From NCBI GenBank assembly GCA_003242035.1, contig QBMC01000028.1:1-32536 (forward strand): DNA of 32,536 nucleotides, given 5' to 3'. The DNA is from Nodosilinea foveolarum (GTDB lineage: Bacteria; Cyanobacteriota; Cyanobacteriia; Phormidesmidales; Phormidesmidaceae). A model generated the notes under the pieces. The model had not been told where the DNA came from, did not search any database, and saw only the letters and a program-made list of their open reading frames with translations. Position 1 is the first letter of the stretch; every line of letters starts with the position of its first letter. Positions 31,376 to 32,536 of this stretch are shown here, one piece after another. The position numbers were made by a program, and so were the translations under genes.

Positions 31376-31409
31376 AAGCCTCTCAGCATTGCTGGGGGGC
31401 TTTGTTTTT
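31376..31409 (+). terminator. psaAB operon terminator
   Basis: Stem AAGCC-TCT-CAGCA (31376-31388) pairs with TGCTG-GGG-GGCTT (about 31390-31402); the central three pairs are T-G, C-G and T-G. It is followed by TGTTTTTG. It lies 38 bases after the psaB stop. Confidence 0.85.
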
Positions 31410-31461
31410 GAGTTGTAGACTAGATAGAGAGCTAGTGAGAAAAATTCAGGAGTCTGGGCCA

Positions 31462-32034
31462 ATGATTGCTAGTAGAACTCGTGGGACTTACCTTACTCTA
31501 GAGAAATATTTAGAGCTTGAGCGCGATAGTAAGATCAAGCATGAGTACATAGAAGGACAAGCTGTTGCAATGGCAGGAGCGACAAGGGCACATGGGGTTA
31601 TCGTCGATAATTTGACGGCACTTTTTGTGACTCATTTGCGCGGGTCTGGATGCATCTCGCATTCTGGAGATGTGAAAGTGCGTATGCCGGAGATAGGCAT
31701 GTTTTATTATCCTGATCAGTCTGTAACCTGCGCAGAAGAGAAGGGCAGTGCTGGAAGGGACTTTATTTTGCACCCCAAACTAATCGTCGAAGTGCTTTCA
31801 AAGTCAACGGCAGAATTTGATCGAAATGCGAAGTTTGAAGACTATAAAACGATTCCAGAGCTTGAGGAGTATGTCTTAGTTCATCAAAAGAAAGTTTTGG
31901 TGGAGAGGTTTTCTAGGCGAGCTGATGGTTTTTGGGCTGCTCAGAAGTATGAGACTGGCGATCGCGTTGAATTTGCGAGTATTAACTTGGCTTTTCCAAT
32001 TGAGTATCTATACGAAAACGTAGAAAATCTCTGA
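31462..32034 (+). CDS. Uma2-family (DUF820) predicted endonuclease
   Basis: 190 residues from the ATG at 31462, which has AGGAG 9 bases upstream; earlier in-frame starts overlap the psaB terminator and are rejected. The N-terminal YLTLEKYLELERDSKIKHEY pattern, YYPDQSV (about residue 77-83), LIVEVLSKSTAEFDRNAKFEDY and LEEYVLVHQ are all typical of Uma2, a PD-(D/E)XK-like nuclease fold expanded in cyanobacteria. The putative active-site D and E (YPD, VEV) are intact. The biological role of the family is not established; copies are often near mobile or defence genes. A frameshifted remnant of a second copy lies just downstream. Confidence 0.92.
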   Translation: MIASRTRGTYLTLEKYLELERDSKIKHEYIEGQAVAMAGATRAHGVIVDNLTALFVTHLRGSGCISHSGDVKVRMPEIGMFYYPDQSVTCAEEKGSAGRDFILHPKLIVEVLSKSTAEFDRNAKFEDYKTIPELEEYVLVHQKKVLVERFSRRADGFWAAQKYETGDRVEFASINLAFPIEYLYENVENL

Positions 32035-32048
32035 TGAGGCTGCAAACT

Positions 32049-32176
32049 ATGATCACTAGTAGAAATCTTAGCTTTTACTTTACGCTGAAGATCGTCTAGA
32101 GCGCGAGCGATTGAAGCTATTGGAATGGGAGTATCGACCGTCTAAACCACTATCGTCTGTAGTTGATAGACTATAG
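32049..32176 (+). pseudogene. Frameshifted 5' remnant of a second Uma2 gene
   Basis: The first frame opens MITSRNLSFYFTL, parallel to MIASRTRGTYLTL of the intact gene upstream. A shift of frame near 32086 then gives EDRLERERLKLLEWEYRP (32087-32140), parallel to the family's LEEYLxxERxxxxxHEY helix. The frame ends at a TAG at 32174. Nothing Uma2-like follows, so only the first quarter of the gene survives. It resembles a duplicate that decayed, rather than a fragment cut from the intact copy, because the two differ at many positions. Confidence 0.65.
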
Positions 32177-32220
32177 GCGATAGTAAAAAATATTGAATGC
32201 TAGAGTACGGAACGGAGTAA

Positions 32221-32439
32221 ATGATAGAGCGGCCCTTTGATGTTTTCTTAGCGCACCGCAGCGTAGATAAGCCATTAATTCGGAAGATCTATCGAGCGTT
32301 AAAAGCAAGAGGACTTAATCCTTGGCTAGATGAGGAAGAAATTCCGCCCGGTACTTCGTTTCAAGAAGAGCTACAGCAAGCTATTGGTCGAGTAAAGACT
32401 GCGGCAATTTGTATTGGCTTAGGACTGACCCATCAATAA
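32221..32439 (+). pseudogene. Truncated TIR-domain protein gene
   Basis: The frame gives 72 residues. The first 66 or so match the start of a prokaryotic TIR domain: FDVFLAHRSVDKPLIRKIYR (first strand and helix), ARGLNPWLDEEEIPPG (the BB-loop region), FQEELQQAI and KTAAICIGL. Related proteins normally continue with a Gly-rich turn and a W..xEL helix, which carries the catalytic glutamate of TIR NADases. Here the reading frame instead runs LTHQ and stops at 32439. The break therefore removes the catalytic helix. The similarity ends abruptly after IGL (about 32421), which suggests an insertion. CGGAG lies just before the ATG. TIR proteins in bacteria act in NAD-depleting antiphage defence. Confidence 0.75.
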
Positions 32440-32536
32440 CTGTCATTTTCATCTGATTCCATCAGGCTTTAAGCTTGTCAGGCTAGGCGTCATTTCCGAG
32501 AGGAGAGTCACGATGACATTTGAATTTCGTAATCAG
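32422..32536 (+). mobile_element. Putative insertion-sequence left end (runs off window)
   Basis: TIR homology stops abruptly near 32421. The following sequence, beginning GGACTGACCCATCAATAA, is non-coding for about 90 bases and leads to a strong ribosome site (GAGAGGAGAG) and an ATG at 32513. That is the layout of an IS: terminal repeat, short leader, transposase. The right end and any target duplication lie outside the window, so this is inference, and I do not assign a family. Confidence 0.4.
32513..32536 (+). CDS. First eight codons of an unidentified gene, possibly a transposase
   Basis: The ATG at 32513 is preceded at 5 to 7 bases by GAGAGGAGAG, one of the strongest ribosome sites in the window. 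Only MTFEFRNQ is visible before the window ends, too short for identification. Position just inside the inferred IS end suggests a transposase. Confidence 0.4.

What the first reader, a model, noticed from the sequence alone, without database searches (positions are those of the whole stretch)
32221..32536. TIR-domain gene interrupted just before its catalytic helix, probably by an insertion sequence
The TIR similarity runs cleanly from FDVFLAHRS to AAICIGL, then stops. The expected W..xEL helix with the NADase glutamate is replaced by a short nonsense tail, about 90 non-coding bases, and a strong ribosome site with a new ATG. This looks like disarming of a potential NAD-depleting defence protein by transposition. 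The rest of the TIR gene may lie beyond the element.
Basis: partly seen in the sequence, partly recalled or inferred. Interest (0 to 1): 0.6.

Follow-up and report, generated by a model that had tools for sequence, protein, structure and literature searches.

The report
TIR gene broken by insertion sequence
In this cyanobacterium a gene for a TIR protein (possibly a defence or cell-death enzyme) has been cut about a fifth of the way along by a common jumping gene present in some twenty copies, an ordinary kind of gene inactivation.

Summary
The window is one contig of a Phormidesmis-like cyanobacterium and ends 115 nt inside an insertion sequence (IS). The left end of that IS occurs in 22 places in this genome, at contig ends; its right end was found in 19. 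The two ends form a 24-bp imperfect inverted repeat (19/24). Seven left/right flank pairs, matched by eye, share a 3-bp TTA/TAA duplication within YTWAR. The frame starting at 32513 looks like an ISAzo13-type transposase. The TIR frame 32221-32418 is 80% identical to residues 1-66 of a 318-aa TIR + GUN4 protein downstream of psaB in P. priestleyi ULC027bin1. The IS entered after codon 67, ten residues before the homologue's W..xE glutamate, so that glutamate and the GUN4 domain are cut off. dN/dS of about 0.23 over the retained part and near-identical IS copies point to a recent event. The remainder of the gene was not found in the held assembly. Several right ends and the IS interior are missing too, so a deletion cannot be told from an unheld short contig. 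Nothing here is mechanistically new. A role in defence is inferred, not shown.

The parts
32221..32421 (+). 5' remnant of the TIR gene: 67 codons, the last (TTA) being the target-site triplet
   Evidence: TIR_2 E 2.9e-13; 80% identical to residues 1-66 of a 318-aa homologue
32419..32421 (+). TTA, left copy of the presumed 3-bp target duplication (YTWA flank)
   Evidence: YTWA/TWAR flanks at the other copies; seven flank pairs share exactly 3 bp. The right copy of this insertion was not found
32422..32445 (+). left inverted repeat of the IS (GGACTGACCCATCAATAACTGTCA)
   Evidence: 19/24 identical to the complement of the right end; left end present 22 times in the genome
32422..32536 (+). first 115 nt of the insertion sequence, cut off by the contig end
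32513..32536 (+). start of the transposase frame (MTFEFRNQ..., extended to 53 aa on contig C165), with GAGAGGAGAG as ribosome site just upstream
   Evidence: weak match to the ISAzo13 transposase model NF033519, E 0.002

Best explanation
A TIR-domain gene downstream of psaAB was interrupted after its 67th codon by a copy of an abundant ISAzo13-type insertion sequence that uses a YTWAR target and duplicates 3 bp. The remaining 72-aa frame lacks the second half of the TIR domain, including the W..xE glutamate, and everything C-terminal of it (GUN4 in the nearest homologue), so it should be a non-functional pseudogene. Shown by sequence: the truncation, the IS end, its copy number, its inverted repeats, the duplication at other copies, and intact longer homologues. 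Inferred: loss of NADase activity, any former role in defence, and the fate of the 3' part (on an unheld contig, or deleted).
For: TIR match ends exactly at the IS boundary; IS left end at 22 contig ends and right end at 19; 24-bp inverted repeat, 19/24; transposase start after the ribosome site; seven flank pairs share TTA or TAA, and Pfam domains run across the join for an ABC ATPase and a Uma2 gene; a 318-aa homologue in the same place downstream of psaB; dN/dS about 0.23 with no stop in the retained part.
Against: The other side of this particular insertion was not found, so its own target duplication is unverified. The transposase is known only from its ends; the family assignment rests on a weak model match and a C-terminal motif.
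Confidence: 0.93

Rival explanations
1. The IS insertion was followed by an adjacent deletion, so the 3' part of the TIR gene is gone rather than lying just beyond the element.
For: No match to residues 68-318 of the homologue at close similarity in the whole held assembly; none of the right-end flanks continues it.
Against: 13 main-type left ends carry TTA but only 8 right ends do, and the IS interior is absent too, so short contigs are evidently missing from what is held.
Confidence: 0.35
2. The 72-aa frame is a natural short TIR protein that merely lies next to an IS.
For: The frame has a start codon, a stop codon and no internal defects.
Against: It covers half a TIR domain; the close homologues read here are 314-322 aa; its last six residues include IS sequence.
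Confidence: 0.02
3. Assembly chimera: the TIR gene is intact and the IS end was joined to it wrongly at the contig end.
For: The junction lies at a contig end inside a multi-copy repeat, where assemblers can err.
Against: The boundary falls exactly at the IS end with the YTWA flank seen at the other copies; no other contig carries this TIR stretch or its continuation.
Confidence: 0.03

Closest known systems
ISAzo13-family insertion sequences
   Same: Transposase start matches the family model (E 0.002, 32 residues); the right end encodes PKWNY..., like the C-termini of other ISAzo13-type transposases in this genome; ends with inverted repeats and a short duplication.
   Different: Interior and DDE core not seen; not compared with ISfinder. 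No DNA match in 57 other genomes, plasmids or the GTDB contigs.
TIR-GUN4 fusion proteins of cyanobacteria (fusion mentioned in eLife 2020;9:e52696, PMC7159879)
   Same: The homologue G006:C222 (318 aa) has TIR_2 plus GUN4 and lies downstream of psaB, as here; the paper names TIR among the domains fused to GUN4.
   Different: The window copy keeps only the first half of the TIR domain. Other close TIR homologues have a different C-terminal part.
Bacterial TIR NADases (such as AbTir, PDB 7uwg) and the TIR effector Cat1 (9mud)
   Same: The intact homologue's TIR domain matches these by sequence, E 2.3e-5 for Cat1 and 0.0055 for AbTir.
   Different: The window frame ends before the region with the catalytic glutamate.

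Membership tests
TIR domain (TIR_2, PF13676) | Sequence match over the curated cut-off | tested here: met
   50.8 bits against a cut-off of 28, but positions 1-58 of 122 only
TIR NADase | Catalytic glutamate in the W..xE segment | tested here: not met
   The frame stops ten residues before it; present as E77 in the intact homologue
TIR NADase | NAD cleavage | not testable with these tools
   Needs an assay
TIR-based defence system | Match to a defence-specific family or partner genes | tested here: inconclusive
   PADLOC models match through the TIR region only; the neighbours are psaB and Uma2
TIR-GUN4 fusion | GUN4 domain C-terminal to TIR | tested here: not met
   Not in the window; only distant GUN4-region matches (27-29%) elsewhere in this genome
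ISAzo13-family IS | ISAzo13 transposase | tested here: inconclusive
   53 N-terminal residues match NF033519 at E 0.002, under its cut-off; C-terminal PKWNY motif
ISAzo13-family IS | DDE catalytic core | not testable with these tools
   The interior of the element is not in the held assembly
Insertion sequence (any) | Multiple copies, terminal inverted repeats, target duplication | tested here: met
   22 left and 19 right ends; 19/24 inverted repeat; 3-bp duplication at seven matched copies

The most novel reading that the evidence does not exclude
The insertion is reversible or kept: precise excision restores the gene, so that a costly TIR effector is switched off and on within the population.
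Probability: 0.03. Interest if true: 0.45.

Novelty: new member of a known kind. Interest (0 to 1): 0.12.

Why it matters
It is a clean example of a TIR gene lost by transposition in a cyanobacterium, with the ends, target site and duplication of the responsible IS worked out. It also warns that short TIR frames at contig ends are likely to be IS-truncated pseudogenes rather than minimal TIR proteins. It does not change what is known about TIR or IS biology.

Tried and rejected
The left-end sequence gave no match in 57 other genomes, plasmids or the GTDB contig collection, so no full-length copy of the IS was obtained. First candidates for the right end were rejected: C74/C76/C139/C127/C59 (ending ...CGATCC) and C206/C121 (ending ...GCTCCC and ...CGTCCC) were too few or lacked an inverted-repeat match to the left end. 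The right end came from shared contig starts. No right-end contig continues the TIR gene. A natural 72-aa TIR was rejected because homologues are far longer. Open frames across a join are weak evidence on their own: 61 of 189 flank pairings that share 3 bp, true pairs included, gave one.

Full report
What is in the window. The window is the whole of contig C210 of a 4.75-Mb, 299-contig cyanobacterial genome. The same-genus genome G006 is Phormidesmis priestleyi ULC027bin1 (identical protein and contig length). At the right end, downstream of psaA, psaB and an intact Uma2-family gene, ORF 32221-32439 encodes 72 aa. It matches TIR_2 at E 2.9e-13, but only profile positions 1-58 of 122. The alignment with homologues ends at ...KTAAICIG. 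The last six residues, LGLTHQ, come from TTA plus foreign sequence.

The foreign sequence is an insertion sequence. The bases from 32422 to the contig end recur in 22 places, at contig ends and with different flanks. One copy, on C165, runs 252 nt into the element and extends the frame that starts at 32513 to 53 residues. These match the ISAzo13 transposase model weakly (E 0.002 over 32 residues). The interior of the element is not in the held assembly. To find the other end I compared the starts of 40 other contigs and some already fetched. Two of them (C6, C41) share ...AATGGAATTACAGAGCTATTCCTGAAAACTTGACAGTTATTGATTGAGCGTTCC. Its complement matches the left end at 19 of the first 24 bases, 14 of them contiguous. 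This end is present 19 times. In one frame it reads PKWNYRAIPENLTVID* (my reading of the DNA), like the C-termini of other ISAzo13-type transposases in this genome.

Target site. Left flanks end in YTWA at 20 of 22 copies and right flanks begin with TWAR at 18 of 19. I matched seven left and right flanks by eye from their proteins: ABC ATPase, radical SAM, LPG-synthase-TM-like, sacsin-like, Uma2, cupin and FtsK-like. All seven share exactly 3 bp and give a continuous frame when joined. About a third of all 189 pairings that share 3 bp also give an open frame, so the weight lies on pairs in which the protein family itself continues. Pfam domains run across the join for the ABC ATPase and Uma2, and below cut-off for the LPG-synthase-TM-like protein; the cupin domain lies on one side of its join. 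So the element duplicates TTA or TAA. In the window the left copy is TTA at 32419-32421.

What was interrupted. In G006 the corresponding gene lies downstream of psaB on the same strand and encodes 318 aa with TIR_2 (residues 8-131) and GUN4 (166-287). The first 66 residues are 80% identical. Other near relatives are 314-322 aa with a different C-terminal part; in one of them a GUN4 domain is encoded by the neighbouring ORF. The break falls after codon 67. In G006 the residues after position 66 are SDELSNWQALEL, whose E77 is the expected NADase glutamate (knowledge of the family; position). dS is 0.48 and dN 0.11 over the retained 66 codons, with no stop, as expected if the gene was under purifying selection until recently; 66 codons is a small sample. 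Most IS copies are 99-100% identical over the stretch seen, which fits recent spread.

What could not be settled. The rest of the gene is not in the held assembly at close similarity, and no right end continues it. Of the main-type left ends 13 carry TTA, whereas only 8 right ends do, and the IS interior itself is absent. The missing part may thus lie on a short contig that is not held, or may have been deleted. The defence role is a guess: PADLOC hits reflect only the TIR region. One paper interprets GUN4 fusions, TIR among them, as likely tetrapyrrole-sensing control of enzymes, a readout of photosynthetic status (PMC7159879).

Verdict. An ordinary, well-supported case of gene inactivation by an abundant IS. 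Its expectation that the gene resumes beyond the element could not be confirmed.

Noticed in passing
window 32045-32135: Between the intact Uma2 gene and the TIR gene lies what looks like a decayed second Uma2 start (ATGATCACTAGTAGAA..., frameshifted), similar to the 5' end of the neighbouring Uma2 gene.
   Followed up: partly
window 31402-32421 against L079: Gene order differs: psaB-Uma2-TIR here, psaB-TIR-Uma2-ORF-Uma2 in P. priestleyi ULC027bin1, which suggests turnover of Uma2 genes behind psaB.
   Followed up: partly
G000 C117 and C257 (L019, L185): Another copy of the same IS interrupts a Uma2-family gene elsewhere in this genome; the joined protein matches Uma2 across the junction.
   Followed up: yes
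G000 contig starts C18, C22, C17, C32, C42 and contig ends C74, C76: Several other multi-copy right ends (...GATCC...CGTTCC) are also followed by TWA(R), so related elements with the same target preference may coexist.
   Followed up: no
L091 (G000 C23): Adjacent genes match PADLOC's PycTIR (E 3e-60) and PycC (E 2.5e-84): a probable Pycsar system, next to an ISAzo13-type transposase fragment at C23:14188-14337.
   Followed up: partly
L053, L054, L056 (TIR homologues): TIR homologues in other genera share a C-terminal region (ILFIKN..DPSGxWAY...AKVTHxVEFLD) that has no Pfam match in my scan.
   Followed up: no
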